Source: a virus. Taken from it: DNA of 64,000 bases. Below the pieces are notes generated by a model. The model was not told the origin of the DNA. It made no database searches and was given only the letters and a program-made list of their open reading frames with translations. Numbering within the stretch: the first letter of the stretch is position 1; each line of letters opens with the position of its first letter. The stretch is from the IMG/VR virus record IMGVR_UViG_3300027917_000019, positions 62,001 to 126,000 of that record. One strand, given 5' to 3'. Made by a program: the position numbers and the translations under genes. Below are positions 4,581 to 37,340 of this stretch, piece by piece.

Positions 4581-6947
4581 ATGAGTCGCTCAGTCACTTT
4601 TAACGGTATTACAAGGTTCCGTCCTGGTGGAATTACCAAGGTCAATGCGGACGCATTGAACCAAGTTGGTATTTCAGCAGCTAGCGTTGTTGGACTTATT
4701 GGTGAGTCTGACGGCGGGGCCCCTGGTTCTGTCAGTGGTCTCATCTCCCTTCGCGATCCTTCTGAAGCTGCCAGCTTGTTCCGTGCGGGGCCGCTAGTAG
4801 ACGCTATCCGTTTGGCTTTCCAATCTTCTGGAGATCCAGACATCCCGGGTGGTGCAGCAGAAGTTGTTATCTATAAGGCTAATGCTTCTACACAAAGCTC
4901 TATTCATGTTCCGGACCCTGCAGGTACCCTTCTTTCAGACACCGCAGCGGGTACTGGATCTACTACAGTTATCGACTTGGTTACCAGTAGTGCACTTGTA
5001 GTAGATTCTCTTGCCGGCCGTTGGGTAGACGTTACTCTCGCAGGTCTCCCCGGATCCCCCACTGTTCGTAGACGAATTGTTTCTAACACAGTTGACTCTC
5101 TTACAGTCACTCCGGCAATGCCTGCAACTGCTACAGCTGCCGACGTAGTAATTGTCCGTCCAACCCTCTTTGAGCTAACCTCTGTTGATTATGGTGCTCA
5201 CACAGAAGGGCTTGAAGTAGACGTTACACGCAACGACACTTCTGGAGCGTATCAGGTTACGGTTTCTTTTGAGGGAGAAGATCAAGTTTCTGAAAGCCTC
5301 GGTGGTCAGAACTTCCTCCAGCTTTACTATCGTGGTGGTCCAAACGACGTTGCTCAGACGACTATCACAACTCCAGGTACTATTACCGCTACGTTCTTTG
5401 ATGTAGCTGCAACACTCATTGCTGCGGCCCATGATGATATGAGTGTCATTGTCACCAACCCTGCTACTGGGAACTTTGAACAGCATAGGATTTCTACCAA
5501 CGGCGTAGGAGATGTGACCTTGGCTGCCCCGGGGTTCTCTGCAGACTTCCTAGCAGAAATTCAGGCAGCTACCGGGGCTACTGTCACAGTAGACATCATC
5601 TCAGTGACTGATGCAACGGCTCAGATTACCGGCGCAAGTGGTGTGGCTACTGCACTAGTCAGCACAATTACTGGAGTAGCTGGAGACAACCTTTCCCTTA
5701 CCATTTCTGCAACGGAGACCGTGCAGTCTCTAGTTGATCGAATCAACCAGAACAGTAACTATCTTGCTGTAGTTCCTAGTGGTATCAATGCTCAGACTTC
5801 GCTAGCTTCGGCGTTTGACTTCGGAGTTGCTGCAATCAACATCCAGAGAAGTATCGCTGTGAACGGCGGCCTCGGATTTAGACAAGACCTCGCACAAGTT
5901 GTTGCTTGGTTTAACGACTACTCAGAGAAGCTCGACGCTGTTAGGTATACAGTAGACACCACAGATGGTGCTTTCCTGCCCGCTACGGCTGCGCTCATCG
6001 ATGCTCTTTTCCTTGAGCCGTTCTCTCTTGTAGGTGGTGCGCGAGGAGCGTCTTCTAACTCTTCGTGGCAGAGCGGGTTTGACGCCATGCTCTTGCGTAG
6101 AGTGGATAATGTCGTTCCTCTAATCGATGAAGACCTTGTTAATGAGGGTCTTGGTTCTACTGCAACATGGGCTTCCGTAGCTGCACAGCTTGCAGACCAT
6201 GTATCCCTTGGACGCGGCGCCGCTGGCCTTGAGCGTGGTGGTTATGTTGGGTTCCAGGGCACTAAGTCTGAGATTATTGCTGCAGCCAACTCTATCAACG
6301 ACCAGGATGTTCAGCTAGTTGCACAGAACCCCACAGTCCTTGACGCCACTGGTACTCTTGTGGAGCAGGGACCCAGGCAGCTTGCTGTTATGGCTGCATC
6401 TATGAGGTCTGGAGTTCAGGAGATTGGTGAGCCTCTTACTTTCAAGTTCTTGAGAGTATCTGGTCTTACTCAGGATGCTTCATGGGATCCTCGTGATCTA
6501 ACAGACTCAGCAGACTTGATCATCGCTGGTGTTCTCTTTGCAGAAACAGTTCCTGGTCAGGGTACACGCTGGGTCAGAGACCTCACCACTTGGGTAAAGG
6601 ACGACAACCTCGCATACTCAGAGGGCTCTGTTCGTTCTGTAGTTCGCGCTGTAACGTATCAGCTTCGCACACTTCTTGAAGAGCGTTTCACTGGTAAGAA
6701 GGCAGTGCCTGCAACTATTAATGCTGTAAAGGATACAGCTACTACACTTTTGGAGTCTTTTAGACAAGACAACGTCATTGTAGATAGTAAGGATCCTACG
6801 ACGGGTGCGACTATTCGTGCTTATCACAATATGAAAGTGTATACTTCTGGAGATGTCCTCAAGCTGAATGTTGGCATCTTCCCTGTACCTGGAATCAACT
6901 TCCAGCTTTCCGAGATTTTCCTCCAGCTCCCGACTCAGTCGGCATAA
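4581..6947 (+). CDS. tail sheath protein
   Basis: 788 residues, start ATG preceded by AGGAG. The N-terminus (PGGITKVNADAL, then VVGLIGESDGG) and the C-terminal part (TTWVKDDNLAYSEGSVRSVVR, then FQLSEIFLQLP) are typical of contractile-tail sheath proteins. The sheath polymerises around the tube and contracts to drive it through the host envelope. At nearly 800 residues it is well above the usual 400-660 residue range. Inserted beta-rich modules occupy roughly residues 115-430, one resembling modules in the next gene and in baseplate proteins. Position just upstream of tube, chaperone and tape-measure genes supports the call. Confidence 0.92.
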   Translation: MSRSVTFNGITRFRPGGITKVNADALNQVGISAASVVGLIGESDGGAPGSVSGLISLRDPSEAASLFRAGPLVDAIRLAFQSSGDPDIPGGAAEVVIYKANASTQSSIHVPDPAGTLLSDTAAGTGSTTVIDLVTSSALVVDSLAGRWVDVTLAGLPGSPTVRRRIVSNTVDSLTVTPAMPATATAADVVIVRPTLFELTSVDYGAHTEGLEVDVTRNDTSGAYQVTVSFEGEDQVSESLGGQNFLQLYYRGGPNDVAQTTITTPGTITATFFDVAATLIAAAHDDMSVIVTNPATGNFEQHRISTNGVGDVTLAAPGFSADFLAEIQAATGATVTVDIISVTDATAQITGASGVATALVSTITGVAGDNLSLTISATETVQSLVDRINQNSNYLAVVPSGINAQTSLASAFDFGVAAINIQRSIAVNGGLGFRQDLAQVVAWFNDYSEKLDAVRYTVDTTDGAFLPATAALIDALFLEPFSLVGGARGASSNSSWQSGFDAMLLRRVDNVVPLIDEDLVNEGLGSTATWASVAAQLADHVSLGRGAAGLERGGYVGFQGTKSEIIAAANSINDQDVQLVAQNPTVLDATGTLVEQGPRQLAVMAASMRSGVQEIGEPLTFKFLRVSGLTQDASWDPRDLTDSADLIIAGVLFAETVPGQGTRWVRDLTTWVKDDNLAYSEGSVRSVVRAVTYQLRTLLEERFTGKKAVPATINAVKDTATTLLESFRQDNVIVDSKDPTTGATIRAYHNMKVYTSGDVLKLNVGIFPVPGINFQLSEIFLQLPTQSA

Positions 6948-8696: not shown

Positions 8697-9128
8697 ATGG
8701 CTTCCAAAACCTTTAGTGGCGCAAGAGCGATTTTCCTAATCGACGCGGTTCCGATTGCATTCGCAGGCGGGGTTAGTGGCGAAGAGATGATCGACTATGA
8801 GCCGATCGACGTCCTGAATCTCCTTGAGGTGAAGGAATTTGTACCCACCTCTTATAGAGCGTCTCTAAATGCACAGATTTTCCGCGTGGTTGGAGAATCT
8901 CTCAAGAAGCTTGGCATCTTGCCGAGACAAGAAGACATCATCTCCTCAGGTGATCTTGAGGCGGCGATTCAAGATGATGCCCGTGTAGCTACGGGAAATA
9001 CTGTTGCGTTGTTCCAGGGCGTTCGTTGCTCCGGACACACGTTCGATGTTACTGCTCGTGGTATTGTTCAGGACAATGTAAGCTTCGTTGCTATCCGCGT
9101 CCTTGACGAATTTGAAAACCCGGTCTGA
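8697..9128 (+). CDS. tail tube protein
   Basis: 143 residues. ATG at 8697 is chosen because CAGGAG sits 8 nt upstream. The sequence has the gp19-like tube pattern: an N-terminal SGARAIFLIDAVPIAFAGG, then VLEVKEFVPTSYRASLNAQ and FRVVGESLKKLG, and a C-terminal strand SFVAIRVLDEFENP. The protein stacks as hexameric rings inside the sheath to form the DNA and effector conduit. Order sheath, structural protein, tube, chaperones, tape measure is normal for contractile tails. An upstream hairpin and TATAAT may allow independent high expression. Confidence 0.85.
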   Translation: MASKTFSGARAIFLIDAVPIAFAGGVSGEEMIDYEPIDVLNLLEVKEFVPTSYRASLNAQIFRVVGESLKKLGILPRQEDIISSGDLEAAIQDDARVATGNTVALFQGVRCSGHTFDVTARGIVQDNVSFVAIRVLDEFENPV

Positions 9129-9146: not shown

Positions 9147-9686
9147 ATGACACAACCTAAAAAGCTTCCTGTAAAGAATGGTATAACTGCTCGTCAAAAG
9201 TTGCTTAAGACTTTTTCTATAGACTACACATCTCCTATTGATGATGTGCGTTATGTAGGAAAGTTTACTACGCGAAAGTTGACTATTGCCGACATGGCCA
9301 CCCTTGGAGTGCGTAAGGCTCAACTCAATGGTGGTATGCATCACGACAGCTCAAATCCGGGTATGGGAGTAGATAGTAGCACTGATGATTTCAATGCGAT
9401 GATCTCTCATCTTGATCTAGCTCTAGAAGAAACTCCCGTATGGTGGGATTTGGAGAAGATCACAGACTCTGATTTGGTTGCGCTGATCTTTGAGGAGGTG
9501 GTCGCTCACGAGAACTCCTTTTTTAGACCCAGAAGGGAACGAAGTGAATCTGGCGTCGTCGGAGAACAAAATGACGATGTGGGAGTTGGCGAAGGAGTGG
9601 GCGAGGGTGATCAAGCGCAAGCCGGAGCCGGTGGAAGCGCTGGCTCGGTGGTGGACGAAGAAGTTCAAGCTGCCTTGGAACCATGA
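9147..9686 (+). CDS. tail assembly chaperone, zero-frame product (gpG-like)
   Basis: 179 residues, start ATG after GGGAGGGG. Residues 1-126 look like a normal compact protein (GKFTTRKLTIADMATLG, then LDLALEETPVWWDLEKI). After TTT TTT at 9519-9524 the frame becomes a Gly/Glu/Ala-rich tail with unnatural composition, while the +1 frame takes over with protein-like sequence. This is the architecture of tail-assembly chaperones encoded just before the tape measure: a short product and a longer frameshift fusion, both of which coat the tape measure during tail assembly. The short product would be made by most ribosomes. Confidence 0.75.
   Translation: MTQPKKLPVKNGITARQKLLKTFSIDYTSPIDDVRYVGKFTTRKLTIADMATLGVRKAQLNGGMHHDSSNPGMGVDSSTDDFNAMISHLDLALEETPVWWDLEKITDSDLVALIFEEVVAHENSFFRPRRERSESGVVGEQNDDVGVGEGVGEGDQAQAGAGGSAGSVVDEEVQAALEP
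9519..9524 (+). promoter_or_regulatory. probable programmed frameshift site (TTTTTT, +1 or -2)
   Basis: Zero-frame codons are TCC TTT TTT AGA. Phe-tRNA can re-pair on the six-T run after moving two back or one forward, and the next codon is then TTA GAC CCA in the downstream chaperone frame. A -1 slip is excluded because it reads TAG at 9524-9526. Slipping gives a fusion of about 306-307 residues. Confidence 0.6.
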
Positions 9687-10068
9687 TCTATTTCAAGAGA
9701 GAAATATGCTCGACCTCATGGTTGAGTATTGGCTCGACAGGTTCGATGAGTCTCCTCTTGAAGTACACCGCAACGCAGACGGCTTCATTCAGTTGAAGGA
9801 TACTGGCGATCCTCTCATCGATAAATGGGAAGAGAAGATTGCTCAGGGTGATGAACCGGATCTTTGGGAAGCTTTCAGTCCTGAAGCGAGGGAACAACTG
9901 AACCGTGCACGTGCGAGAGCTTCTAAAATACAAGCTCAAGGTGGGTATACAATTGCCGACGCTATGGAGCGCGTTGGGCGTGAGGCTCGCGCACAAGGTC
10001 TCGACGATCCCTCAAGACACACTCAGCGCCCCTATAGGTTGGATACCTTTGGAGATGGCACAGATTAA
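9523..10068 (+). CDS. tail assembly chaperone, shifted-frame extension (gpT-like)
   Basis: The frame is open from before 9490 and runs 181 codons beyond 9523 to the TAA at 10066-10068. It reads LDPEGNEVNLASSENKM and continues with an alpha-helical, charged sequence (WELAKEWARVIKRKPEPVEAL, then a C-terminal RARARASKIQAQGGY region). It most likely forms the C-terminal half of the frameshift fusion with the 9147 gene. An alternative is independent initiation at ATG 9571, which has GGAG 6 nt upstream. Its stop overlaps the tape-measure ATG as TAATG, as expected for a chaperone coupled to its client. Confidence 0.7.
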   Translation, partial: LDPEGNEVNLASSENKMTMWELAKEWARVIKRKPEPVEALARWWTKKFKLPWNHDLFQERNMLDLMVEYWLDRFDESPLEVHRNADGFIQLKDTGDPLIDKWEEKIAQGDEPDLWEAFSPEAREQLNRARARASKIQAQGGYTIADAMERVGREARAQGLDDPSRHTQRPYRLDTFGDGTD

Positions 10069-12410
10069 TGGCTGATGACACTACTCAAGAAGTAACTATC
10101 AAAATTCTCGGTGAAGCTGAGTCGTTTAAGAAGTCAGTAAAACAAGCGACTAAGCTCACCACGGATTTGGAAAAGCTGTCTTCTCGATACCGCAAGAGCG
10201 GTATGGGGCAAGCTAAAGCTTTAGATAAGATTACTGGGAAGCATAACAAGTCTCAGCGAGATGCAGGTAAGAAAGCCTTCGAAATGGAGAAGAAACTCCA
10301 GAAGGTTATCAAAGACAACATCAAAGAAATTCAGAAGCAGCAGAAGGCATTCAAGGGAAATGCTCTTGCAGTAAAAGAAGAGTTGAAGGCCCTCAAGGAG
10401 TTGGAGAAGCAGCATCGAAAAATTGCTGCATTCCGTAAGAAGACTGGATACCGCAGCATGGGTGAACGCTTTGGGGGTGGTGCTCGTGCTGTAGGGCGTG
10501 GTTTGGGTAGTGGTGTGCGGGGGGTAGGCCAAGGAGTTATGGCCCTTGGCGGCATGATCATGGGTGCCGTAACCGCAATTGTCGGAACCCTCATTTCAAC
10601 TGTCACCAGTCAAATCCGACAAGGATATGCGTCCTACATTAACTACGGTAGGGCTAGAGCGGGTCTTGGAGGCATGGGGGCATTCAGGGGTAACGGCCGT
10701 CGTGCATTTGGCACTGCCATGAAGTTGGGGTTCTCTAAGACAGAGACCGTCCAACAGATGCGCAATGTTGGTAGAGTTACAGGTAACATCAACGCAGTGA
10801 CACAAGCCCAGGCGGCTGCACGCTCCTTTGGTGGAGATGTGGGAGAAGTCGCTGGGTTCATGGGAACCCTTACCCGAGGTGGTCAAGGCTTTGGTGGACT
10901 CGCTGGTAAGGGTGGTGAGCGTACTCTTCGCCGTGTCATGTCTCACGCCTTCTCCTCCGGGTTGGATCACTCTCGTGCTGGAGAACACTTGGCTGCTGTT
11001 GCTTCTGGTGTTAAGGCAGCACAAACCGTAACTGGCGGAAGAGTCAACGCAGACCAGATTTCTGCTATGCTCTCGTTCTTTGGACGAAGTGGCATGCCTG
11101 GTCTTCAAGGTGCTGCTGGTATGGCGCAGCTTGGTAAGCTTGACCAAACAATCAAGAAGGCCGGATTTGGTGGAGGCGGTGACCCTACATCTGCTCTAAT
11201 CTATCAGGCTTTGGGATTTGGTCAGGCAGGTGGTACTGCTAGTTTCTATGAGGCCACTAAGCAGGCACAGCGTGGAATCTTCGGCGAGGGAGGCGCTGGT
11301 AACCTTATGAAGGTTTGGGAGCGTTTTGGTCAAACAGGTGGAGGCATAGGAACTCAGAAGACCAACATAGAGCTTTCCAACGCAACGGGGATGTCTTTGG
11401 ATGTCATTGAGTCGATAAACGACGTGATCCTAAAGAGCGGCGGCACGATTGAGGCGCAGAAGAAGATCGCAGAGATAACAAAACAACAGCTTCCAGTGCA
11501 GAAGCAGATTCTATTGGCTACCCAAGAAGGACATTTGAAGGTTGCTGAGCGTGTTGCTTTCTTGGAAAACCGTTTGGTTACTATAGGTGAAGCTACTGCC
11601 GAGTCTATTGAGAAACTTCAGGACATTTTCAACGATGTTGTTGATACGTTTTTGCCGACCGCAGTAGTTGCTCTCAAAGTCATTGCTGAAGTGGTTTCTA
11701 ACATTTGGTTCTGGTTGAAGGACTTTGGTCGTAGCTACAACGAGTCTGCAATAGAGAAGAAGAAGCTTGCAGGGATCAGTGCTGAGCGCGAGAACATTCT
11801 CAAGAAGTACGCTTCTGGTGAATATGATCGAGCAAAGGCTGCTGAAATGATGAGACAAAATGCAGCTAAGGCAGGAGCTGCCAGAGCAGCACTACAAGAT
11901 GATGTAGATCCCATCCTCGATGCATATGATGCACTAGTAGATGTTGGCCACCGTACTGGACAGGCTGTTGGAGCTATTGCTCCTGACGTTAAATCCAGGT
12001 GGCAACAAAGACAAGCTGTAGAAGCGGCAGCTGTTCGTTTGAAGCAGAGGTCGCTAATAGACGCGACAAACATTGCCGGTACTGCCTATAGAGGACGTGC
12101 TTTGGAATTTCAGAGTCGTATTGGGCAAGATGTTGCTAGGATAGGAGAGCTTTCTGGTATTTCTGAACCCACGGAAGCTCAGCGACATGAGTTGGAAACA
12201 CTGCGTGCGCGTAAGAGAGATCTTGAGCGTCGTCGTGATGAGGCTGTAAGAGAACAGGTCCAAGAAGAAGCCCAAGAATCAGGAGTGGGCGCAGGACTGA
12301 CTTCAGGGTCTCCAATCGCTTCTCGTGATGACCCCGCTTCTTTCCGCGCTAGTGGATCAATGCAAGCACCTACTACATACGTAGGTAGGGGCAGAACGGC
12401 ATACGGGTAA
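10068..12410 (+). CDS. tape measure protein
   Basis: 780 residues, start ATG overlapping the previous stop. The N-terminal 140 residues are highly charged and coiled-coil-like with many Lys, followed by a Gly-rich segment and a hydrophobic stretch near residues 150-185 (VMALGGMIMGAVTAIVG). A second hydrophobic region lies around residues 530-560, and the C-terminus returns to charged helices. Tape measure proteins set tail length and are ejected ahead of DNA, with hydrophobic segments helping membrane passage. At about 1.5 angstrom per residue, 780 residues would imply a tail near 115 nm. Position after the chaperones is diagnostic. Confidence 0.88.
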   Translation: MADDTTQEVTIKILGEAESFKKSVKQATKLTTDLEKLSSRYRKSGMGQAKALDKITGKHNKSQRDAGKKAFEMEKKLQKVIKDNIKEIQKQQKAFKGNALAVKEELKALKELEKQHRKIAAFRKKTGYRSMGERFGGGARAVGRGLGSGVRGVGQGVMALGGMIMGAVTAIVGTLISTVTSQIRQGYASYINYGRARAGLGGMGAFRGNGRRAFGTAMKLGFSKTETVQQMRNVGRVTGNINAVTQAQAAARSFGGDVGEVAGFMGTLTRGGQGFGGLAGKGGERTLRRVMSHAFSSGLDHSRAGEHLAAVASGVKAAQTVTGGRVNADQISAMLSFFGRSGMPGLQGAAGMAQLGKLDQTIKKAGFGGGGDPTSALIYQALGFGQAGGTASFYEATKQAQRGIFGEGGAGNLMKVWERFGQTGGGIGTQKTNIELSNATGMSLDVIESINDVILKSGGTIEAQKKIAEITKQQLPVQKQILLATQEGHLKVAERVAFLENRLVTIGEATAESIEKLQDIFNDVVDTFLPTAVVALKVIAEVVSNIWFWLKDFGRSYNESAIEKKKLAGISAERENILKKYASGEYDRAKAAEMMRQNAAKAGAARAALQDDVDPILDAYDALVDVGHRTGQAVGAIAPDVKSRWQQRQAVEAAAVRLKQRSLIDATNIAGTAYRGRALEFQSRIGQDVARIGELSGISEPTEAQRHELETLRARKRDLERRRDEAVREQVQEEAQESGVGAGLTSGSPIASRDDPASFRASGSMQAPTTYVGRGRTAYG

Positions 12411-12413: not shown

Positions 12414-15400
12414 ATGTCAGCAATTGACTCTGGGGCGCCCGAATCAGGGGCAGATAGTGTAGATGGGTTGCGTAGGTACACTACGCGCATCAAAGTACTA
12501 GTTCATTCGCATAATCATGCCGATGGCCCTATAAATCTTTCCGACGATGTAATGTCCTGTCAACTCGGTAAGAATATCAAGGGAGTTGGCAGAGCTAATA
12601 TTGCGGTAGTAGCTAGAAATAGCTACTTGAACATGCTTTATCCAAACGACTACATCAACATCTATTTCGATGTGGGTGATGGTAAGGGGTGGGTGCGTAC
12701 TTTCTTTGGGCTGATAGACCGCGTAGAAGAGGACATCACCGTTGCTGAAAACGGAGTACCTACCACGCTCTACCACATCATCGCTACAGACTTCCAGAAG
12801 ATCTTCCAGAAGACTAACATCTACTTCAACCCCCACCTGTTCGACAGACCCGACATGTCTGGTGAGGACTTCAACGCATTCAACATCGGTGGTGTTGTGT
12901 TGATGACGCGCGGTATTCGTGTACAGGGTAGTCCTGCGGACATGGTTACCAACCAGATTTTGTTGCAGATTGGATTTGGAAGTCAATGGAAACTCCCAGA
13001 TAGTTATCCTGCTGCTGTTGAAGACCGCTTTGCAAATCAACGTGCACAATATGCACAAGACAGGTTGTTTGAGTCTGTTAGCAATTTGATGACTCCAGAA
13101 GAGTCAGATCGCTTGCGTACAATTCTACAAGAGCGTGGCCTCAATGCGTACGCGCTCGACACAGAGGATGAGGTCACTTCTGCACTTACAAGCAATGCAG
13201 GAGATAGTTTGTCTTCTGGGGATGCTTCAGAACGCACTGCAGCAGCTATACAAGCTGTTGGATTAGACCGCGCTGACGTTGAGGCAGGGGAACTGACAGC
13301 CCTCACATCTACTACAGATGTTGGGAGCATGGCTAGAATCCTTTCAGACGCGCGCATTAGGCAACAACTCTTTGGCAGTGGGTTGTCAAACGAGAGCCAA
13401 CAGATAGCGCGAGAAGCTATCAACAGCTACATAGGCACGGAGTTGGTTTCTAGGAATGCTACTAACATCGTAGACATTATGAATGTCTTTGACTTCGTAG
13501 AACGTAGAGCCATCGACGGTTATGCTTTTGACCTTGCTATCTGGGAGAAGCAAGGGCCTCTTGAGAGTATCCTTCGTTCTGTGTCTAACGAAGCTATCAA
13601 TGAGTTGTTTTTTGACCTTCGCCCGCTTACGACAATTCCTGAGGGGGGAGAAGACCCTAACGTATTCCACAAGGCAGGAACCGATTGGGATTACCGTCCT
13701 GATGAAATTGGTGGAAACAAACCAGACGTTACAAACCGCGCTAGCGGTGTTCGATACATGCCTTCTGTGGTTATGCGTGAATACCCGTGGGCTACCACAC
13801 ACAGAATCGACGCTAGCGGTGTAGACGTCAGCGTTGGTAACAATGACGGCCAGTCAGGGAACTTGGGTATCATCTACTTTGGTGGTATATTCTCCAACCG
13901 TCCTAATGAACCGGGTCGACACCTTGTTGGAATACCGGTCTTGAATCTTGAAGAACAGGTAAACGGATTCCGAGGACCTAATCGTACTTACAAGCATTTG
14001 GATGTAGCTGTAATCTCTGAAACGGAAATACGACAGACACGTCTTGGGCGTTCAGATGCTGAGCACTTCAACCTCTTTGAGATGTGGACTGAGGGCGTTT
14101 CTGGTCCAGAGATGCGCTACTACATGTACGACTTCCTGCCTATTATCACCCCTATTCACATTCAGAGGCACGGACTGCGTACTCGTACGGTAACCACTAG
14201 ATTCTCTAGGTATCCGCCTGCGTTGTCTAGAAATCTTCGACCGCAAGCAGAAACACCTGCGGAGGAGGAAGTAGAAGAGGCAGAAGTAACTGCAGCGGAG
14301 GCGCCAAGGGAGGAGAGAGAATTAGTTCCTCCCGTGGGAGCACACCCCTCATTACATTTCAGAAATATAAACCAGATGGCATATGGTTATCGTCCGCGTG
14401 ATGGAGGTTGGACTTTCCATAACGGCATCGATATTTACGGAGACGGTCCAGATCTTTCTGTGTATCCTTTCAGTGTACAAAAGGAAGGAAAGTCTCAAGG
14501 GCAGGTAGATGTAGTAGCTATTGCTGATGGTTTGATTGTAGGGTCAATGGCACAAGGAACTATGTCTAAGTATGGAAATGCAGTTGCTATTTACCACCCG
14601 CAATATGATGTAATTTCTTGGTATGCTCACCTCGCTCATCGTGAAGAGCTTACAGGGAATGTAGATGCAAGTAGACGTAGAGCGGATGCTTTCAACAGGG
14701 AGTATACTACTATCGGTAGCAGTAGTAGGTTTACTCCCATCCCTGTTCGAAGAGGACAAAAGATAGGATCAGTAGGGGTTACGCAGGGGGTTAGTGATGG
14801 AGATCCTAATGCAATCTTTCGCACAGACCGTGCTCACCTGCACTTTGAAATTATGCATAGGGTACCGTCTAGAAATCACGACGCTACTCCAATTATTCCC
14901 TACACCACGCTTGCCCGCACCAGTCCTAAGCCGCCCGGATCGAACCCATACGGCGAAGATCCTGTTGAATGGTTTGCCTCTCATGGAGTAGATTTAGAAG
15001 CTGAAATTAGAGCGCTTGGAGACACCCCCACAGCCTCAGACTTCGATGAAGAAACCAGTATTGATGACACTGATGAAGTAGCTCCTACCGCAGAATCTCG
15101 AATAGCTTCTGGAATAGAGGATGAGGTATCAACAACCCTTACTACAACCCGCCAGCAAACCATGCGTGGTGTGGTGGATTCAATAGACCAGAGAAAGCAA
15201 ATTGGTCGTTGGGCGTTGTTGCAGGACCATTGGTATCAGCACAACCTTGAGTATCTTTCTGGGTCTGTTGTTATGCGTGGTGCTCCTGAGATTCGTATAG
15301 GGTACCGCCTGGACATCAAAGAACGCCGTACTAGTTTCTATGTAGAAGGTGTGCAGCATTCTTGGCAGTACCCCAACGAGATGCAGACTACCCTTCAGGT

Positions 15401-15917
15401 AACTCGTGGACAGCCTAATAACCCGTATCCGGCGTATGCTCTTCCGCCAACGCAAGGCTTCAATAGTCCTCCTGAGGCACGACGCGGGGCTTCAAGGTTG
15501 GCTCACTTCTTCGTCGTGCCAGATCCCATAGCTATTCGCAGAGCCATTGCTTTGCGAGACAACTCTGCGGGTAATGTAGTTTCCCATGAAAGGGCTAACA
15601 AGAACTTCTTGAATATAATCGACGATAGTAGATATTTCACAGAGTTTGGCTATGGAGAAGGACCTCGTGGATTGCTTTTGCCCACCAGTCAAGAGTTTGA
15701 TTCTCCTGCTGCAGCTCTTGCAGAGATTGCGGCGGCTTCTGACATCAGTGAGGAGGAAGCTAGGGAACAACTACGTGCGGCTGGACTAGAGGTTGGAGAG
15801 AATGGTGTTGTGCGTACAGACATAGACCCAGAAGGTGTGAGTACTCCGCTTTCTGGAGCTACTGAAGGTGCAACCAGCTTTGATGGTGTTCCTGTTCCTG
15901 GGTTAGACCAGTGGTGA
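12414..15917 (+). CDS. baseplate hub protein with M23 peptidase domain
   Basis: 1167 residues. The N-terminal approximately 200 residues (FFGLIDRVEEDITVAENG, then YHIIATDFQKIFQKTNIYF) resemble hub proteins of the gpD/gp44 kind. An Asp/Glu/Ala-rich linker precedes an M23 (LytM-type) endopeptidase with zinc ligands H669 and D673 (HNGID) and the HLH motif at H808/H810. The C-terminus returns to hub-like sequence (SFYVEGVQHSWQYP). The enzyme should cut peptide cross-links in peptidoglycan when the tail penetrates. The peptidase sits between hub halves, so the domain looks inserted. Start ATG lies 3 nt after the tape-measure stop. Confidence 0.82.
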   Translation: MSAIDSGAPESGADSVDGLRRYTTRIKVLVHSHNHADGPINLSDDVMSCQLGKNIKGVGRANIAVVARNSYLNMLYPNDYINIYFDVGDGKGWVRTFFGLIDRVEEDITVAENGVPTTLYHIIATDFQKIFQKTNIYFNPHLFDRPDMSGEDFNAFNIGGVVLMTRGIRVQGSPADMVTNQILLQIGFGSQWKLPDSYPAAVEDRFANQRAQYAQDRLFESVSNLMTPEESDRLRTILQERGLNAYALDTEDEVTSALTSNAGDSLSSGDASERTAAAIQAVGLDRADVEAGELTALTSTTDVGSMARILSDARIRQQLFGSGLSNESQQIAREAINSYIGTELVSRNATNIVDIMNVFDFVERRAIDGYAFDLAIWEKQGPLESILRSVSNEAINELFFDLRPLTTIPEGGEDPNVFHKAGTDWDYRPDEIGGNKPDVTNRASGVRYMPSVVMREYPWATTHRIDASGVDVSVGNNDGQSGNLGIIYFGGIFSNRPNEPGRHLVGIPVLNLEEQVNGFRGPNRTYKHLDVAVISETEIRQTRLGRSDAEHFNLFEMWTEGVSGPEMRYYMYDFLPIITPIHIQRHGLRTRTVTTRFSRYPPALSRNLRPQAETPAEEEVEEAEVTAAEAPREERELVPPVGAHPSLHFRNINQMAYGYRPRDGGWTFHNGIDIYGDGPDLSVYPFSVQKEGKSQGQVDVVAIADGLIVGSMAQGTMSKYGNAVAIYHPQYDVISWYAHLAHREELTGNVDASRRRADAFNREYTTIGSSSRFTPIPVRRGQKIGSVGVTQGVSDGDPNAIFRTDRAHLHFEIMHRVPSRNHDATPIIPYTTLARTSPKPPGSNPYGEDPVEWFASHGVDLEAEIRALGDTPTASDFDEETSIDDTDEVAPTAESRIASGIEDEVSTTLTTTRQQTMRGVVDSIDQRKQIGRWALLQDHWYQHNLEYLSGSVVMRGAPEIRIGYRLDIKERRTSFYVEGVQHSWQYPNEMQTTLQVTRGQPNNPYPAYALPPTQGFNSPPEARRGASRLAHFFVVPDPIAIRRAIALRDNSAGNVVSHERANKNFLNIIDDSRYFTEFGYGEGPRGLLLPTSQEFDSPAAALAEIAAASDISEEEAREQLRAAGLEVGENGVVRTDIDPEGVSTPLSGATEGATSFDGVPVPGLDQW

Positions 15918-15923: not shown

Positions 15924-17336
15924 ATGAGTAATGACTGGCGTCCTATAGTTGGTATCGATAGAGGCCCTGTTCAGCAAGGTTTGGTAACAGATCCTGCTGA
16001 TTATGAGCACTATCAAATGAACAGCCTTATGTTGGGTGTCATTCTTGAGGTGTATCCTTCCGACTCCGAACTTAACCGAACAGCCCACATCTCTGAACAG
16101 CGTCGAGGATTTTACCACGAAGCTAAAGTGCTATTGGTAAACACCAACTCTTCTTCTAACCTTCTTGTCGACCACGCGGTTATTTGCCCATCTGTTCACA
16201 CAGGATTAGACGACTACTATGAACATCTTCCTCGTGGAAGTTCTAACCGCGTAGATGGTGAACGTTACGTTGTTGGTGGTGCTAACGTAGACCCGTACGA
16301 TCTAGATGGTGATTGGTGTGTTGTAGGCTTTATGGGGGGAAGTTTGGACCAACCCTTCATAGTCGCGTGGTGGCCTCATCCTAGGAATGTTTACGACGCT
16401 GCTACCAGCGGGAACGCTAATGCGAATAGGACTGGGGTACCCCAGTCGTTAGACCAGAAGAACAGATACTTTCGTAGAATAAATGGAGTTGAGCATGTTG
16501 TTACTGGACGCGGAGATATCTACCTATCCACAACGTATGCCAACTCAGACCTTCGCTTCGGCACTGACATTCCTGCAACCAAAGGGCGCTTCCCTCGCAG
16601 CCTGAAGGCAGAAGAGGGAGGGTCTATTCTACTTGAAGTTAAGCCTACACAGACTTTAGAACTATCTTGGGACGAACAAATAGATGGTGCTGGGATACGC
16701 CGTGGAAGTGAGGCTGAGCTTCCTCAAACTAACCCTCCTCCAACAACGAGGCAAAACGCTTCAGCTACCCCACGTACAAAAACGTACGTGAAAATTGACC
16801 AAGAAGAGTTTCGTGTAGATGTTCCTGAGGATGTCAAAGTCACTAGTGGCAAGCGTGTTCGAATCTTCTGCGAGGATACAACTACCCTTTTTGCTACCAA
16901 CCTGCTAGAATTGGAAGCAGCACAGGTATCACTCGCAGGAACTTCGGGTATTACGCTTGACAGTGATACAGGTAACATTTCCCTCAGTGCAGCTACTCTA
17001 GTAGACTTGATATCACAAGCTGCAATGAATCTCACAGCTTCCGGTGCTATTACCATTGGTGGGTCTTCGGTGACCATTGGCCCATCTACTCCTGGCGCTG
17101 GAACAATAAGCTCTACAGATACAGGCGTTGCACTAGGAACAGGTGCAGTGGATGCTATTGTTAGGGGAACGGCATTGGACACGGCGTGGGCACCTGTCAG
17201 TACAACGTTAACAGCTGTTCCGGCTGCTGCCGACTTGGCATCAGCTATAACCTTGGCAAACGCAAATAAGGCAGCTATTCTAGCATTGATAGCGGCCCTT
17301 GCTGGCAGTCTTTCAACTACAAATACTACGGGATAA
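15924..17336 (+). CDS. baseplate spike / central puncturing protein
   Basis: 470 residues. An OB-fold-like region occurs around residues 90-150 (DGDWCVVGFMGGSLDQPFIVAWWPHPRN), typical of gpV/gp5-type spikes. A C-terminal beta-helix follows, built from short repeats (SLAGTSGITLDSDTGNISLSA and similar), then a Ser/Thr-rich tail. Such trimers form the needle that pierces the outer membrane. Neighbours are the hub with M23 peptidase and the LysM/gp25 fusion. The C-terminal tip shows no obvious HxH iron site or PAAR repeat. The stop overlaps the next ATG as TAATG. Confidence 0.78.
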   Translation: MSNDWRPIVGIDRGPVQQGLVTDPADYEHYQMNSLMLGVILEVYPSDSELNRTAHISEQRRGFYHEAKVLLVNTNSSSNLLVDHAVICPSVHTGLDDYYEHLPRGSSNRVDGERYVVGGANVDPYDLDGDWCVVGFMGGSLDQPFIVAWWPHPRNVYDAATSGNANANRTGVPQSLDQKNRYFRRINGVEHVVTGRGDIYLSTTYANSDLRFGTDIPATKGRFPRSLKAEEGGSILLEVKPTQTLELSWDEQIDGAGIRRGSEAELPQTNPPPTTRQNASATPRTKTYVKIDQEEFRVDVPEDVKVTSGKRVRIFCEDTTTLFATNLLELEAAQVSLAGTSGITLDSDTGNISLSAATLVDLISQAAMNLTASGAITIGGSSVTIGPSTPGAGTISSTDTGVALGTGAVDAIVRGTALDTAWAPVSTTLTAVPAAADLASAITLANANKAAILALIAALAGSLSTTNTTG

Positions 17337-19282
17337 TGGCAACAGGAAACTCTCCCATTCTTTTGCGCGGTTCTACTGTCTCTCGTTTTACAGACGAGCA
17401 GCGTACAGAGCGTGTGAATTTGGGTGCACAAATCACACCCACGATTCAGAGACTGTATAGCATCTTCTTGTGGGATTTGGATGCTGGTGAGATTCTAGTA
17501 TCTCGTCCTTCTTTGGACCCTGCAGAGCGCACTGACAGGGCTGAGTATTTCTTCACGACGCCCCCCAAGGTTCACGATATGACTGAACCGTTTGCTACTC
17601 GCATTATTGCCACACAAAACGGTGGTAAGTACATTGAGTCACACGGTTCTATTTTCAAAGAGATTCGTGTGTCGGGAAACACGGGGTTGCGCCCGCGTAA
17701 GAAGCTTCCGAACGTCATCCCTCTATTGCCTACTTCTTCATTCTTGGGCGTAGCTGAAGCGTTTACAGCAACGGGGTTTGGTAACGAGATTCGTAAGATC
17801 CCCTCAGAAGAGAAGACTGGCTTTGACGATATCCACTTTCTGCGAAACATCTTTCGTAGGTACTCAGACTCCAAGGGCCGTAATGAGCGCCTGATTATGG
17901 TGTGGAGAAATGTCAAGGATGATGATTACTGGGTTGTAGAGCCACGTTCATTCAAACTCCTTCAGAATTCATCTTCACCGCTTACGTACGGGTATCAACT
18001 GGATATGCAGGGGTTGTCCAAGTTCGACCCTTCATTGGCTGTAGTTACTGCTGTAGCAGATCCTCTTGAAGCTCTGAGAAACATTTCGAGGTTCTTCTCT
18101 CGTATTCAAGAGTTCAAGCAGAACTTGTTGTCTTCTTTCTTGGTTGTTGCCACACAGATTAAGCGAATTCAGGGAGCTGGCCACTTCCTGATGAATAACT
18201 CACTAGGGTCTTTGACTGCTGTGATTCAAGGACTTACGGCGATTACCTCTGCAACTTCAGACGTGGCCCCTGGTCTACAGAGAACAGTTAGAGAAGCTAA
18301 GGACAACTTCAACGCGGCGCTTGCTGATCTCACTGCACCTCTAGAGCTTGCAACTCCGAGCGCTTCTTTTACTCCTGAACAAGAGAAGCACCTAAACAAC
18401 TTTGGGACACTAATCAATACTGTGCGTAAAGTCTTGCGCATACTTGACTTCATTCAGATTGAGCCGACCCTGCAAGACAACATCTCTACGAGCGAGGATG
18501 GCGTCAGGCGTCGAGCACGTGGCACCTATCGTACGCCGGGGGGAGGCACAGGGTCTCCGACGTCTCCACGCACTGCAGGGGATCCTACGTACATTGGAAG
18601 TTCAAGCTCTCCCTCTGCCGTAGCTGAGGCTAGAGTTGGGGTTGGAGAGACAATCCGAGACCTTTCTATGCGTTTGTTGGGAGACTTCAGGCGTTGGCAC
18701 GAGCTAGTTCTTTTGAACGATCTCAGAGCACCCTTTGTTTCTGATGGGGCACTCACTCCAGGAGTTCTAGCGCCTGGGGACGTTATTCTTTATCCCACAC
18801 CGATTGGCGTTACTGATCCTTCTAGAATTTCTCCCAGGATGCTTACAGACGCGGAAACTGAGAACCAAGACCAGAACGTATCTGGAATCATTTCTCAGAC
18901 GTATGGACGTGACCTGCGTTTGAAGTCTGTGGAAACAGATCTTACAGACCTGGCAGTGAACCAACGGGGAGACATTTCCACTATAGTTGGTATTCCCAAC
19001 GTCAAGCAGGCAATTCTTATCAAGTTTGCTACAGAGCAAGGGACGCTTCCTGCACACCCAGGGTTTGGTGCTCGCTTCCCTATCGGTTCTAAAGCAGACG
19101 TGGTGTCTTTCAATGAGTTCCGTATAAACACACTTTCTACTTTACAAAGCGATCCCCGTATTACAGACGTGTCCAGACTAGAGTTCAAGTCTCTTGCTGA
19201 CGTTTTGGTTGTAAGTGCTGAAGTCATCTTGCAGGACGGGGCAGATTTCCTAAACACTGACTTCGCTCTCCGTAGGTTCTAA
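17336..19282 (+). CDS. LysM and gp25-like baseplate wedge fusion protein
   Basis: 648 residues. The N-terminal about 230 residues are a beta-rich phage domain (LIMVWRNVKDDDYWVVEPRSFK), followed by a helical region to about residue 380 and a low-complexity Gly/Thr/Ser linker. A LysM-like domain follows (about residues 435-485: VGETIRDLSMRLLGD, HELVLLNDL, LAPGDVILYP). The last 130 residues match the gp25/W wedge pattern (FATEQGTLPAHPGFGARFP). In T4, LysM (gp53) and gp25 are separate wedge subunits; here they seem fused. It is flanked by spike and J-wedge genes, as expected for baseplate assembly. Confidence 0.75.
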   Translation: MATGNSPILLRGSTVSRFTDEQRTERVNLGAQITPTIQRLYSIFLWDLDAGEILVSRPSLDPAERTDRAEYFFTTPPKVHDMTEPFATRIIATQNGGKYIESHGSIFKEIRVSGNTGLRPRKKLPNVIPLLPTSSFLGVAEAFTATGFGNEIRKIPSEEKTGFDDIHFLRNIFRRYSDSKGRNERLIMVWRNVKDDDYWVVEPRSFKLLQNSSSPLTYGYQLDMQGLSKFDPSLAVVTAVADPLEALRNISRFFSRIQEFKQNLLSSFLVVATQIKRIQGAGHFLMNNSLGSLTAVIQGLTAITSATSDVAPGLQRTVREAKDNFNAALADLTAPLELATPSASFTPEQEKHLNNFGTLINTVRKVLRILDFIQIEPTLQDNISTSEDGVRRRARGTYRTPGGGTGSPTSPRTAGDPTYIGSSSSPSAVAEARVGVGETIRDLSMRLLGDFRRWHELVLLNDLRAPFVSDGALTPGVLAPGDVILYPTPIGVTDPSRISPRMLTDAETENQDQNVSGIISQTYGRDLRLKSVETDLTDLAVNQRGDISTIVGIPNVKQAILIKFATEQGTLPAHPGFGARFPIGSKADVVSFNEFRINTLSTLQSDPRITDVSRLEFKSLADVLVVSAEVILQDGADFLNTDFALRRF

Positions 19283-24343: not shown

Positions 24344-27300
24344 ATGCCTAAGTCTCTAAAAGTACATGCCAACGAGCGTGTTGATATCCCGGATTTTGAA
24401 CGCGCCGCAAATGACTACACCAATGAGCGTGCAGCATTTGAAGAAGAGCGTCTCGTTCTAGACAGACGATCTCGTGTTCTAGAAGGATTTCGTGTCAAGA
24501 TTGAGGATCAAACCGCCACACCTGGTGCCATTACTGTGTTTAACGGAACGGCGTTGGATCGTGATGGATACTCGCTACACGATGAAGAGCAGGCAGATGC
24601 TAGTGTAACCCTAACCCTTTCGGGGGCGGCAACTACGTTTTATCTAGAAGTAGAGCTTGCAACGGCAGATACGGACACGGATGCTCGCGAATTCTGGGAT
24701 CCTACGTTTGATAACGGAGCACCGCCTGCAGTTGACGGCGCAGAATTTGCAATTCCTGTAGCTACTAGAGTCACTCCTACATGGCGAATCGTACAGCCTG
24801 TTTCTACTACAGCTTTTGCTTCAACAGCAGACCCTGGCAGTACAAAGATTCCTCTGGCGATCTTGACTACTGACGGCTCTAACGTAATCAACGGTACGTC
24901 TACCGTAGGGCTTGTCCAGGTGGATGCCGCGTCTGTAACAGAGTCTTCCATTACCGCTGGAGGTACTTTGTTGAGAGTTTTCGATTCTAGACTGTTGGGT
25001 AACGTTGGAGACGACGTAATTCTTGGGTTTGGTCTTGGTACTTCAGAGACAGCAACCCTTACAGCAAACGACAAGGATAACGGAATTATCCAGTTTGCTG
25101 CATCTACTAATGCCCACGGTGTTGGTGAAATTGTACAGGCGGCTGGTACTGGGCGCCTCATGCAAGAGAAGCAAGACCCAAACAACTCCTCAGCCCATCC
25201 CGATAACACAAGACGTTTGTGGCAGGGAGATGAAGTTCGCGGTGGTGCTCTTACTCAGTCTAAGGACGCAGTTGCTGATCGAGATGATCTAAACGTTCGT
25301 ACTCTCAAAGACAAGCTGGATATGTATGATGGCTTGATTAGAGAGTTGAAGTGGGGAGCGTTTGATCCTGCAACAACAAGCGTTACTCCTCCCACAGTGT
25401 TTGCCTCACGGCCTAGGTATTTCCACAATGCAGGATCTGTTGCGGGTTCTCGCGCCGTTACTCTTACCATTGGTAACGGCACTTCAACGTTTGGAGACTA
25501 CAACGGTACGGATGAGAATGTTTTCCTAAATGCTTTGAACGCGCTGCCTAACACAGGCGGGGCTATTCACGTGAAGGCAGGAACTTATCAGATCGGTAAT
25601 CAGGTGGGGTTTGCAACTGCCGGAAAAGATGTAGTCTTTACGGCTGAATATGGTACAGTTGTTGTTGAACAACGTAATAGCGGTGGTGCTGCGTTCTTGA
25701 TAAACCAGTCTGGAGATCTCATCGGTTTCCATGGGTTTATTTTCAACGTTGCCGGAACGGGTACACAAGATATCTTCGAAGCCAGCGCAGGACGCTGGGA
25801 GATGCGCAACTGCGACATCAACGGAAGTGTGTTGGCGTCTGGTGCTTCTACCTCATTAGTACTAGATTGGCATGGAGTAAACATCGTTTCCGCTACAGGT
25901 AATGAGGCGTTCTACACCACCAAGACAGGTACGGGTGTTAGTGGTCTAGTAACCAAGTGTGAGTTTAGAACCACGACAGACACGTCTGTAGATGATGTGA
26001 GTCTTCGTGGCTTGTTCACTAGTTGTCGTTTTAACGCCTGCAGATTCCAGGGAGCAACAACGTATGCTTACCGCTGTGTTGAATTGGCTGCCGGTTTGGA
26101 CGTGCAGTTTACCAACTGCTTTTTCCAAGGACGTCGTGCGGTTGAAGTAGACACAACAGTAAATGCAACGTTTACTGGTTGCTTTTTCCTTACACAGGCT
26201 AACACACTAGATGCAGGTATCCTTCTAACGGCTACAGATAGCGCACTTTTCAACGGTTGTCATATCCACCATCAGGAGAGCAGCGCTCCCGATACCTCGT
26301 CTACCCCTATGATTGCTATGTTTCTTGACGGTGCTAGTGAAGGTACAACCATTTCTGGTTGTACTTTTGAAGGAGAGTCGGGGGCAACAATCTATACAGT
26401 GGGAATTGCTTGTGGAGCAACTACTACACGTGCTGCGCAGGTGCGAATCACTGGGTGTGATTTCAAGTGGATGTATGTGGGGGTTTACCTCGACACAACC
26501 ACAGCTGGTGTAGCTCCTCCTGGGTCTACATTCAACGTTTCAAACTGTACGGTTGATTTTGACGCTTTGGCATATTCCGAGGTTTACGGAATTGTTGCAG
26601 CAGGGGGGCCTGAGGTTGAACTAAATGTCAGCAACTGTACTGTTTCTAACGGACACAACGCGGACAGTTGTATTGGTATCGGTTTCGTAGACATGGAGAC
26701 CGATTCTCGACTTATTGTAGACGGTTGTACGGTAGAAGGTTTGGGAACAGTCTCAGGGTCTGGATCTGTGTTTGGGATTTTGTGCACCGGTACTGCAGCT
26801 GTAGACGAGGGTAGTGCGATTATTTCTAACAACCACGTTAGAACACTAGCTACAAGTTCAACGCAGTGTGCTGGTATTTTTGTGAACGGTATCGAACGTG
26901 CTGTCATAACGGGTAACGTAGTAGAAGGACTCACCACCGTCACTGGTACGATCAGTGCTGTAGGTACTGGTCCTGGTTTGGGCGCTGGACACGAAGCACT
27001 AGTCATTTCAGACAACATCATTCAGAATATGACCGCTGCAACGTCAGGAACTATTAAGGCTGTTGAAGTTCTCTCTTTCCCGCAGACGGTTGTAAAGGGG
27101 AACATCATTCACGGTATCGCAACAGCTACTACTACAGGCAGTAGGGCAATTGAAATCACTGCTGCAACGCAGAGCGTGATTGTAGGCAGTAACAACATCT
27201 TCATGGAAGCGGGCGCTTCTCCGGCTGGTGATGACGTTCAGTATTGTGTTTACGTTGACGTACCTAGTCTTGGTATGGCTATCATTGAGAACAACGCGAT

Positions 27301-27943
27301 CAAGATGGGAGACGTAGCGTCTCGTGGGATCAAGGTAGACCCCAATAGCCCTGGCGTAGCGTATGGAGGAGTATCTATTGCTGGCAATACCATCTCTGAC
27401 ATGACAGCGGCTGGTGCTAAGGGTATAGAAGTTACAGGGCCGAGTAACTTTGACACTTCTGGGCCTGTGAGCGTTACAGGAAACACCATTCAAGTTAGCG
27501 CATATAATGCAACTCATGGAGGTATCATCATAGTAGGTAACTCAGGGTTCGAGCTTGAAGGCGTGGCCATTACCGGTAACAATATTTGGGCAACTAACAC
27601 CACCAATACAAGAACTGCTGGTTACGCAAACGCAGGTATTGGACTAACATACTGTGACTACGTATCAGTTTCCGGCAACACGGTTCGTTGGAATCAGGCT
27701 GGTACTTCAAGTGGAGAAGGTATAGTTGCTGATAACTGTCAGCAGGGGGCCATTGCTGGGAACATCGTCACTCCTGCCTCTACTGGTGGAAACGAAATCT
27801 CACATACGGGTGGAGATTTTGCTATCGTCGGAAACTGTGTTGGTGGTGGCGGACAAGCCGGTACTGTTGGTGGAGTCGGTTCTACTTACACAGTTGATCC
27901 AACCGCTGGCACACCTGAGCCTCTTAACCACCTCGGCCCGTGA
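24344..27943 (+). CDS. beta-helix tailspike / receptor-binding protein
   Basis: 1199 residues. A helical N-terminus (NDYTNERAAFEEERLVLDRR) probably docks to the baseplate, followed by a beta region to about residue 330. From about residue 370 to 1150 there are many right-handed parallel beta-helix coils, with repeated (I/V)-(G/S)N-(I/V)-- patterns such as ISGCTFEG, NVSNCTV and VSGNTVR. Such spikes bind and often degrade surface polysaccharide. No catalytic residues can be assigned by eye. The gene ends before a small hairpin at 27952. Confidence 0.82.
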   Translation: MPKSLKVHANERVDIPDFERAANDYTNERAAFEEERLVLDRRSRVLEGFRVKIEDQTATPGAITVFNGTALDRDGYSLHDEEQADASVTLTLSGAATTFYLEVELATADTDTDAREFWDPTFDNGAPPAVDGAEFAIPVATRVTPTWRIVQPVSTTAFASTADPGSTKIPLAILTTDGSNVINGTSTVGLVQVDAASVTESSITAGGTLLRVFDSRLLGNVGDDVILGFGLGTSETATLTANDKDNGIIQFAASTNAHGVGEIVQAAGTGRLMQEKQDPNNSSAHPDNTRRLWQGDEVRGGALTQSKDAVADRDDLNVRTLKDKLDMYDGLIRELKWGAFDPATTSVTPPTVFASRPRYFHNAGSVAGSRAVTLTIGNGTSTFGDYNGTDENVFLNALNALPNTGGAIHVKAGTYQIGNQVGFATAGKDVVFTAEYGTVVVEQRNSGGAAFLINQSGDLIGFHGFIFNVAGTGTQDIFEASAGRWEMRNCDINGSVLASGASTSLVLDWHGVNIVSATGNEAFYTTKTGTGVSGLVTKCEFRTTTDTSVDDVSLRGLFTSCRFNACRFQGATTYAYRCVELAAGLDVQFTNCFFQGRRAVEVDTTVNATFTGCFFLTQANTLDAGILLTATDSALFNGCHIHHQESSAPDTSSTPMIAMFLDGASEGTTISGCTFEGESGATIYTVGIACGATTTRAAQVRITGCDFKWMYVGVYLDTTTAGVAPPGSTFNVSNCTVDFDALAYSEVYGIVAAGGPEVELNVSNCTVSNGHNADSCIGIGFVDMETDSRLIVDGCTVEGLGTVSGSGSVFGILCTGTAAVDEGSAIISNNHVRTLATSSTQCAGIFVNGIERAVITGNVVEGLTTVTGTISAVGTGPGLGAGHEALVISDNIIQNMTAATSGTIKAVEVLSFPQTVVKGNIIHGIATATTTGSRAIEITAATQSVIVGSNNIFMEAGASPAGDDVQYCVYVDVPSLGMAIIENNAIKMGDVASRGIKVDPNSPGVAYGGVSIAGNTISDMTAAGAKGIEVTGPSNFDTSGPVSVTGNTIQVSAYNATHGGIIIVGNSGFELEGVAITGNNIWATNTTNTRTAGYANAGIGLTYCDYVSVSGNTVRWNQAGTSSGEGIVADNCQQGAIAGNIVTPASTGGNEISHTGGDFAIVGNCVGGGGQAGTVGGVGSTYTVDPTAGTPEPLNHLGP

Positions 27944-27951
27944 TCTCTTTC

Positions 27952-27970
27952 ACCCACATAAGTGGGTCTA
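27952..27970 (+). terminator. small hairpin after tailspike gene
   Basis: ACCCAC (27952-27957) pairs with GTGGGT (27962-27967) around an ATAA loop, followed by a short T-rich CTATTT. It lies 8 nt after the tailspike stop. Stem length is modest, so it may be only a partial terminator. Confidence 0.4.
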
Positions 27971-27988
27971 TTTGGAAAAGGTAATTTC

Positions 27989-28429: not shown

Positions 28430-28432
28430 GCT

Positions 28433-29425: not shown

Positions 29426-29426
29426 T

Positions 29427-32208: not shown

Positions 32209-32218
32209 GTGAGGGAAC

Positions 32219-33020: not shown

Positions 33021-33031
33021 TTGAGGTAGAC

Positions 33032-36329: not shown

Positions 36330-36660
36330 AAGAAGTTCACCGGAAGAAGTACCTGTTGATGTTAATGGCAACATACTCAGGGCTGGTCGTGGTAGAGATG
36401 TTCACTCTTTCACCTCAGGGAAAGACACTTTCATAACAGCTTTAGCTTTACACCGAGCTTGGAAACACGGCGCTGCTTATCGCATTTTGATGATTGACAC
36501 GTCGTGTGGGAAGACTTATCCAATGTTTGCCGGGGATTTTTTTGCTATGATGAAAACAGTGTCGATGTATAAGGGAGAAATTCTAGGCGAATGGGGATAC
36601 TGCCAAAAGTCTTCTTACTACGGAATCTATTTGGTTCAGGAAATTGACACAGATGAGTAA
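36322..36660 (+). CDS. hypothetical protein
   Basis: 112 residues from ATG 36322 (AGGTG upstream, ATGCGTAA 8-nt overlap with the helicase stop); GTG 36316 is possible. Basic N-terminus, then mixed alpha/beta with several Cys and Tyr. It lies between the helicase and the DEDD exonuclease in one translational chain. No family or motif recognised. Confidence 0.6.
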   Translation: MRKRSSPEEVPVDVNGNILRAGRGRDVHSFTSGKDTFITALALHRAWKHGAAYRILMIDTSCGKTYPMFAGDFFAMMKTVSMYKGEILGEWGYCQKSSYYGIYLVQEIDTDE

Positions 36661-37297: not shown

Positions 37298-37305
37298 GTT
37301 CTGAA

Positions 37306-37334: not shown

Positions 37335-37340
37335 CTGGGG

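What the first reader, a model, noticed from the sequence alone, without database searches (positions are those of the whole stretch)
9490..9686. Programmed +1/-2 frameshift in the tail chaperone pair
Two open frames overlap for about 200 nt just before the tape measure. Zero frame reads TCC TTT TTT AGA at 9516-9527; six T at 9519-9524 allow a slip of +1 or -2 into the frame with LDPEGNEV. A -1 slip hits TAG at once. Most phages use -1 here, and -2 is known for Mu-like tails, so this is a rarer variant. The zero-frame tail after the site is Gly-rich and non-protein-like, while the shifted frame is protein-like to the tape measure start. A start at ATG 9571 with GGAG is a competing explanation.
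Basis: partly seen in the sequence, partly recalled or inferred. Interest (0 to 1): 0.68.

Follow-up and report, generated by a model that had tools for sequence, protein, structure and literature searches.

The report
Frameshifted phage tail-assembly chaperone gene
A large tailed phage (host unknown) makes two versions of a tail-building helper protein because ribosomes sometimes skip one base at a run of six T's; this is a known trick (already annotated in Bacillus phage SPO1), here with an unusual slip sequence and a second overlapping reading frame that evolution has kept open.

Summary
The 9147-9686 frame is a tail assembly chaperone (PHROG 25000; its predicted fold matches the chaperone of Bacillus phage JL). 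The +1 frame (9523-10068) encodes its C-terminal "T" half. Every relative examined that has both halves shows the same +1/-2 offset: 18 of 18 viral contigs of the window's clade, and all isolated phages with both halves detected. The slip codon is homologous: an alignment of the window clade with SPO1-like chaperones runs exactly to the Phe of the slip site. Across the family the site is UUU_C (17/17 isolates, 27/33 clade sequences). The window is a UUU_U variant and two relatives share UUU_U. A -2 slip cannot re-pair at most of these sites, so +1 is ancestral. The competing ATG at 9571 is not conserved. The "non-protein-like" zero-frame tail is not junk: it stays open for 47-58 codons in 17/17 distinct sequences, far beyond chance. 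The SPO1 record annotates the same +1 slippage and a paper notes TTT-CGC in haloviruses, so this is a variant of a known kind. No product was measured.

The parts
9147..9686 (+). Zero-frame tail assembly chaperone (G-like), 179 aa; residues 1-125 are the conserved domain, 126-179 the tail after the slip site
   Evidence: phrog_25000 tail assembly chaperone E=5.6e-10; AlphaFold model pLDDT 86.5 matches Tail assembly chaperone of Bacillus phage JL, E=1.2e-7; profile match to SPO1-like G halves E=9.5e-11
9519..9524 (+). Shift site UUU UUU: P-site UUU 9519-9521 slips +1 to UUU 9520-9522; next codon UUA 9523-9525 (Leu)
   Evidence: sequence; homologous position UUU_C in 27/33 clade sequences and 17/17 isolates, UUU_U in window, L232 and L236
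9523..10068 (+). T half, read only after the shift: LDPEGNEV...GDGTD (181 codons plus stop TAA)
   Evidence: homologues 25-50% identical in 18 records, always at +1 offset; profile match to T halves of Pseudomonas/Bordetella/Aeromonas/Morganella phages E=3.5e-13
9525..9686 (+). Dual-coded stretch: zero-frame Gly-rich tail of G and N-terminal part of T
   Evidence: zero frame open 47-58 codons in 17/17 distinct sequences; expected stops 3.1-5.5 each given the T protein
9494..9499 (+). GGAGGT, Shine-Dalgarno-like, 19 nt before the slip codon; role unproven
   Evidence: GGAGG in 15/17 clade sequences against 5.4 expected with amino acids fixed (maximum 11 in 2000 draws)
9571..9573 (+). ATG with GGAG (9561-9564) in the T frame: competing internal start, judged not the main route
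   Evidence: not conserved; L229/G019 and G023 have no ATG/GTG/TTG between slip site and RWW motif; lies in a predicted window-only hairpin
10068..12410 (+). Next gene, probable tape measure protein (780 aa)
   Evidence: position after the chaperone pair and homologues in the same place in relatives; no family match beyond E=0.011
8706..9128 (+). Probable tail tube protein
   Evidence: phrog_985 virion structural protein E=1.1e-9; annotated tail tube genes of SPO1 and EalM-132 lie in the same place
4581..6947 (+). Tail sheath protein (contractile tail)
   Evidence: phrog_279 tail sheath E=1.1e-38

Best explanation
This is a lambda G/GT-type tail chaperone gene that uses +1 ribosomal frameshifting. 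Most ribosomes read 9147-9686 and make the G form. A minority, holding peptidyl-tRNA-Phe on UUU 9519-9521, slip one base forward onto UUU 9520-9522. They then read UUA (Leu) and continue to 10068, making a G-T fusion of about 306 aa (ENSF-LDPEG at the junction). By analogy with lambda (established knowledge), G and the rarer G-T coat the tape measure protein and recruit the tail tube protein. Shown here: both frames, homology of both halves, conserved offset, conserved slip codon, selection on both frames. Inferred: that the shift occurs, its rate, and the chaperone roles.
For: Same offset in 18/18 clade records and in every isolate with both halves found by PHROG 25000 (sites read). The G profile aligns to SPO1-like G halves up to and including the slip Phe, E=9.5e-11; the T profile matches other phages' T halves, E=3.5e-13. 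The slip tetranucleotide is UUU_C in 17/17 isolates and 27/33 clade members. TTT is used at the slip Phe in 16/17 against 47% elsewhere, p=5e-5. The codons of close relatives, TTT CTC AGA AGG in L193 and L197, become the window's TTT TTT AGA by two C-to-T changes without altering frame. T-frame substitutions peak at its third codon position from the first 15 codons after the slip. The SPO1 record states +1 ribosomal slippage for gp10.2-gp11.1. A tRNA-Phe(GAA) gene is on the same phage genome.
Against: No protein, ribosome profile or reporter data. UUU_U lacks the slow CGN codon in the A site and the wobble gain (UUU to UUC) thought to drive UUU_CGN sites. The T6 sequence permits a -2 slip in this phage. 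After a +1 slip the bases read U_UUU_UUA, a -1 slippery heptamer that could return ribosomes to the zero frame. Three clade sequences (G023, G026/G027, L235) lack re-pairing at UUU_Y.
Confidence: 0.85

Rival explanations
1. A -2 shift in this phage: tRNA-Phe on the second UUU (9522-9524), with AGA waiting in the A site, slips back two bases onto UUU 9520-9522, then reads UUA; product ENSFF-LDPEG.
For: U6 gives perfect re-pairing only here and perhaps in L236 (ATG TTT TTC); AGA follows. -2 shifts at U-runs are known in other viruses (established knowledge).
Against: Most relatives cannot re-pair after -2 (TCG TTT CTC, AAC TTT CGC), and L232 (AAC TTT TCG) has UUU_U without a -2 option. AGA is not rare (10.3 per 1000 codons) and a tRNA-Arg(UCU) is phage-encoded.
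Confidence: 0.1
2. No frameshift: the T half starts on its own at ATG 9571 (GGAG 6 nt upstream) as a separate protein.
For: ATG with a good ribosome-binding site at 9561-9573.
Against: The T frame is conserved and shows coding-type substitution upstream of that point. The ATG is not conserved; L229/G019 and G023 have no usable start between slip site and RWW. The overlap is kept in all relatives, and separate genes would have no reason to keep it.
Confidence: 0.04
3. RNA polymerase slips on the T6 run, so that some mRNAs carry T5 (or T8), and a standard reading of these gives the fusion.
For: A homopolymer run is present in the window.
Against: T6 is short for transcriptional slippage (established knowledge). 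The homologous sites in nearly all relatives have only TTT C, where such slippage is not expected, yet keep the same offset.
Confidence: 0.03
4. Sequencing or assembly error in the T-run; the real gene is one continuous frame.
For: Homopolymer in a metagenome assembly; the only second copy is identical and may share reads.
Against: 18 relatives, none with the T6 run, show the same two-frame arrangement, and identical copies of several of them occur in 2-3 separate records; only T6 is found among T5-T7.
Confidence: 0.02

Closest known systems
Bacillus phage SPO1 gp10.2 / gp11.1 tail assembly chaperone (+1 slippage annotated in NC_011421)
   Same: Same gene position (tube, chaperone pair, tape measure), same +1 offset, homologous G half, Phe UUU slip codon at the homologous residue, UCC before it
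   Different: SPO1 has UUU_CGU and a zero-frame tail of about 16 codons; the window has UUU_UUU AGA and a 54-codon tail. The T halves of SPO1-like phages do not match the window T profile significantly (E=0.44)
HF1-group and HSTV-2 haloarchaeal myoviruses, TTT-CGC +1 chaperone site (PMC7230728; PMC5009743)
   Same: +1 offset between the two chaperone ORFs before the tape measure, with a UUU_C slip codon in HF2
   Different: No detectable PHROG 25000 match; archaeal hosts; in HF2 the zero frame stops two codons after the slip codon (CGC AGA TAG)
Pseudomonas phages Dolphis and Touem01, Bordetella PHB04, Aeromonas ST4, Morganella Mecenats66 chaperone pairs
   Same: T half is homologous (E=3.5e-13); +1 offset; UUU_CGC/CGA
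   Different: UUU_CGN not UUU_U; in Dolphis, Touem01 and PHB04 an AAGGAG lies about 6 nt before the slip codon instead of GGAGGT 19 nt before; the Dolphis and Touem01 records do not annotate slippage
Phage lambda gpG/gpGT
   Same: Works like it: two overlapping ORFs before the tape measure, short G and frameshifted G-T
   Different: Lambda uses -1 on a slippery heptamer; no sequence match tested
Influenza A PA-X and amalgavirus UUU_CGN +1 sites (PMC3498833, PMC5052127)
   Same: P-site tRNA-Phe slippage on UUU; UCC in the E site of the influenza site, as in the window
   Different: Unrelated eukaryotic viruses; there UUU_C with a CGN A-site codon matters, and UUC_AGA abolished shifting

Membership tests
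Tail assembly chaperone of the SPO1/PHROG 25000 type | G-half sequence and fold | tested here: met
   PHROG E=5.6e-10; hhalign E=9.5e-11; Foldseek E=1.2e-7 to phage JL chaperone
Tail assembly chaperone of the SPO1/PHROG 25000 type | T half homologous to known T halves | tested here: met
   Pseudomonas-type T halves E=3.5e-13; SPO1-like T halves not significant, E=0.44
Tail assembly chaperone of the SPO1/PHROG 25000 type | Position between tail tube and tape measure | tested here: met
   tape measure identity rests on position and conservation
+1 frameshift at UUU_C(GN) | Second frame at +1/-2 offset, conserved among relatives | tested here: met
   18/18 clade records, all isolates with both halves
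+1 frameshift at UUU_C(GN) | UUU slip codon that can re-pair at +1 | tested here: met
   UUU_U at 9519-9522
+1 frameshift at UUU_C(GN) | C after UUU and CGN codon in the A site | tested here: not met
   The window has UUU then AGA; clade mostly CTC (12/33) and CGN (10/33)
+1 frameshift at UUU_C(GN) | Fusion protein produced in cells | not testable with these tools
   needs mass spectrometry or a reporter
Lambda-type -1 frameshift | -1 offset and X_XXY_YYZ heptamer in the zero frame | tested here: not met
   Offset is +1; a -1 shift meets TAG
Mu-type -2 frameshift | -2 slip conserved among relatives | tested here: not met
   No re-pairing at -2 in most relatives

The most novel reading that the evidence does not exclude
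The window site is a natural variant in which UUU_U without a slow CGN or stop codon still supports programmed +1 shifting. In this phage clade a GGAGGU element upstream and a selected, dual-coded zero-frame tail of about 50 codons are part of the device, perhaps setting the G to G-T ratio. This would be a +1 design not described before.
Probability: 0.3. Interest if true: 0.5.

Novelty: new variant of a known kind. Interest (0 to 1): 0.36.

Why it matters
It resolves a +1/-2 ambiguity by comparison: the chaperone shift of contractile-tail phages infecting Bacillus, Staphylococcus, Listeria, Enterococcus, Pseudomonas and Thermus hosts, and of archaeal HF2, sits on a Phe UUU codon at the same place. 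Exceptions such as the window (UUU_U), L232, L236, G023 and G026 are natural tests of what the site needs. The clade also offers 17 distinct examples of a roughly 150-nt region coding in two frames at once. For annotation: in phages K, P100 and LP65 the T half carries the label 'RNA polymerase beta subunit', which this analysis suggests is wrong.

Tried and rejected
Tape measure, sheath and chaperone proteins used singly as queries found only the identical contig; the major capsid protein gave the relatives. tblastn of both halves against phage isolates: no match. Sheath alignment too divergent to scan with. A downstream RNA structure: the window alone folds somewhat better than shuffles (z=-2.5), but eight relatives share no structure (2 pairs, -0.15 kcal/mol), so rejected as a stimulator. 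GGAGGT as ribosome-binding site for a T-frame start: no consistent start codon follows in the T frame, so rejected. Amber suppression rescuing a -1 shift: the phage has a CUA tRNA, but the -1 frame meets TGA a few codons after the TAG, so rejected. Solved structures: no homologue. The T-half model was poor (pTM 0.37) and was not used. The count of T-ending codons is biased because the overlap is defined by being open; one search is used instead.

Full report
Observation. The zero frame runs 9147-9686, the T-run is 9519-9524 in TCC TTT TTT AGA, and the +1 frame is open 9487-10068. A -1 slip meets TAG at once, and ATG 9571 has GGAG in front. The window is part of a 165,819-base viral record. A second contig, IMGVR_UViG_3300001687_000026, is identical over at least 18 kb of the window, T-run included. 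No T5 or T7 version exists in the collection.

Identity. The zero-frame protein matches PHROG 25000, tail assembly chaperone. Its model (pLDDT 86.5) matches predicted structures of known chaperones, including Bacillus phage JL (E=1.2e-7). The neighbours fit a contractile tail: sheath 4581-6947, probable tube 8706-9128, M23-peptidase tail protein 12414-15917 and baseplate protein 17336-19282.

Relatives. A capsid-protein scan found 80 loci (capsid 47-78% identical outside the identical contig). Of 50 records searched, 18 contain both chaperone halves; in all 18 the second frame is offset by +1/-2. Further scans gave more, including four contigs in one Myxococcales genome bin. Isolated phages give the same answer: each record with both halves matched by PHROG 25000 is offset +1. 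Reading the junctions gives UUU_C in 17/17 isolates, UUU_CGN in all but LP65 (UUU_CUC). In the window clade it is UUU_C in 27/33; UUU_U in the window, L232 and L236; and UUU_G, UUC_A and UUC_C once each. These counts are of related sequences, not independent events.

Homology of the site. Profile comparison of the G half with SPO1-like G halves ends on the same Phe in both (E=9.5e-11). The T half matches T halves of Pseudomonas, Bordetella, Aeromonas and Morganella phages (E=3.5e-13) but not detectably the SPO1-like ones (E=0.44). Close relatives read TTT CTC AGA AGG (L193, L197); two C-to-T changes give the window's TTT TTT AGA.

Direction. In most relatives a -2 slip would place tRNA-Phe on a codon such as CGU or ACU, which it cannot read; a +1 slip places it on UUC, or on UUU in L232. 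So the family shifts +1, and parsimony gives +1 here, although U6 alone would also allow -2. For influenza PA-X, whose site UCC_UUU_CGU is like that of SPO1 and K, mass spectrometry showed +1, and P-site slippage on UUU_C was inferred (PMC3498833).

Both frames are selected. With the T protein fixed and codons drawn at the clade's usage, the zero frame would meet 3.1-5.5 stops in the overlap. The chance of none is 0.0003 for the window and 0.0005-0.025 for the 16 other distinct sequences; these are related sequences, so the product is not a probability. In seven ungapped relatives, substitutions in the overlap peak at the T frame's third codon position from the first 15 codons after the slip (144, 101, 86 at T positions 3, 1, 2), less sharply than beyond the overlap (368, 150, 135). 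This fits coding in both frames, with T dominant. It also indicates that T is translated upstream of the point matching ATG 9571. Several relatives lack that ATG, and L229/G019 and G023 have no ATG, GTG or TTG between slip site and the RWW motif.

Other elements. GGAGG lies upstream of the slip codon (19 nt before it in the window) in 15/17 clade sequences, against 5.4 expected with the protein fixed (maximum 11 in 2000 draws). At that distance it is outside the range of known Shine-Dalgarno effects on shifting (established knowledge), so its role is open. No conserved downstream RNA structure was found. The phage encodes tRNA-Phe(GAA), tRNA-Leu(UAA) and tRNA-Arg(UCU), and AGA is not rare (10.3 per 1000), so a hungry AGA codon is an unlikely driver.

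Known and new. The SPO1 record annotates +1 ribosomal slippage for this gene pair. A paper on HF1-group haloviruses names a TTT-CGC motif for +1, and a review calls HSTV-2 very likely +1. The finding is therefore a variant within a known class. What differs is the UUU_U site without CGN, the long dual-coded zero-frame tail and the GGAGG element. No experiment supports production of the fusion here; that remains the missing step.

Noticed in passing
L013 7263-18624 (G000 27263-38624, upstream of the window): 37 tRNA genes and a tmRNA in a cluster, including one with a CUA anticodon (12246-12318); TAG is the stop of only 3 of 81 ORFs of 200 aa or more. Possible amber suppression in this phage.
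   Followed up: partly
NC_005880 60537-61073 (L237), NC_007610 19970-20557 (L239), NC_006565 83529-83975 (L063): The T half of the chaperone is annotated 'RNA polymerase beta subunit' in phages K, P100 and LP65, which looks like a spread misannotation.
   Followed up: partly
window 9494-9499 and homologous sites: GGAGGT 19 nt before the slip codon, kept in 15/17 clade sequences beyond codon-choice expectation; role unknown.
   Followed up: partly
L206-L209 (JAHFDS010000082, 116, 020, 046): Four different chaperone loci of this kind in one Myxococcales genome bin (nzgw250), all TGG TTT CGC GGG; probably phage contigs and a hint at the host range.
   Followed up: no
L182 (G030 31023-31469): One search reports the T-half match of this relative with one TAG inside and a frame that otherwise stays open for 835 aa; possible readthrough, or chance.
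   Followed up: no
G000 about 140-165.8 kb (L016, L017): Mostly minus-strand genes, with G+C 0.54 in L017 against 0.47-0.49 elsewhere; a differently organised end of the record.
   Followed up: no
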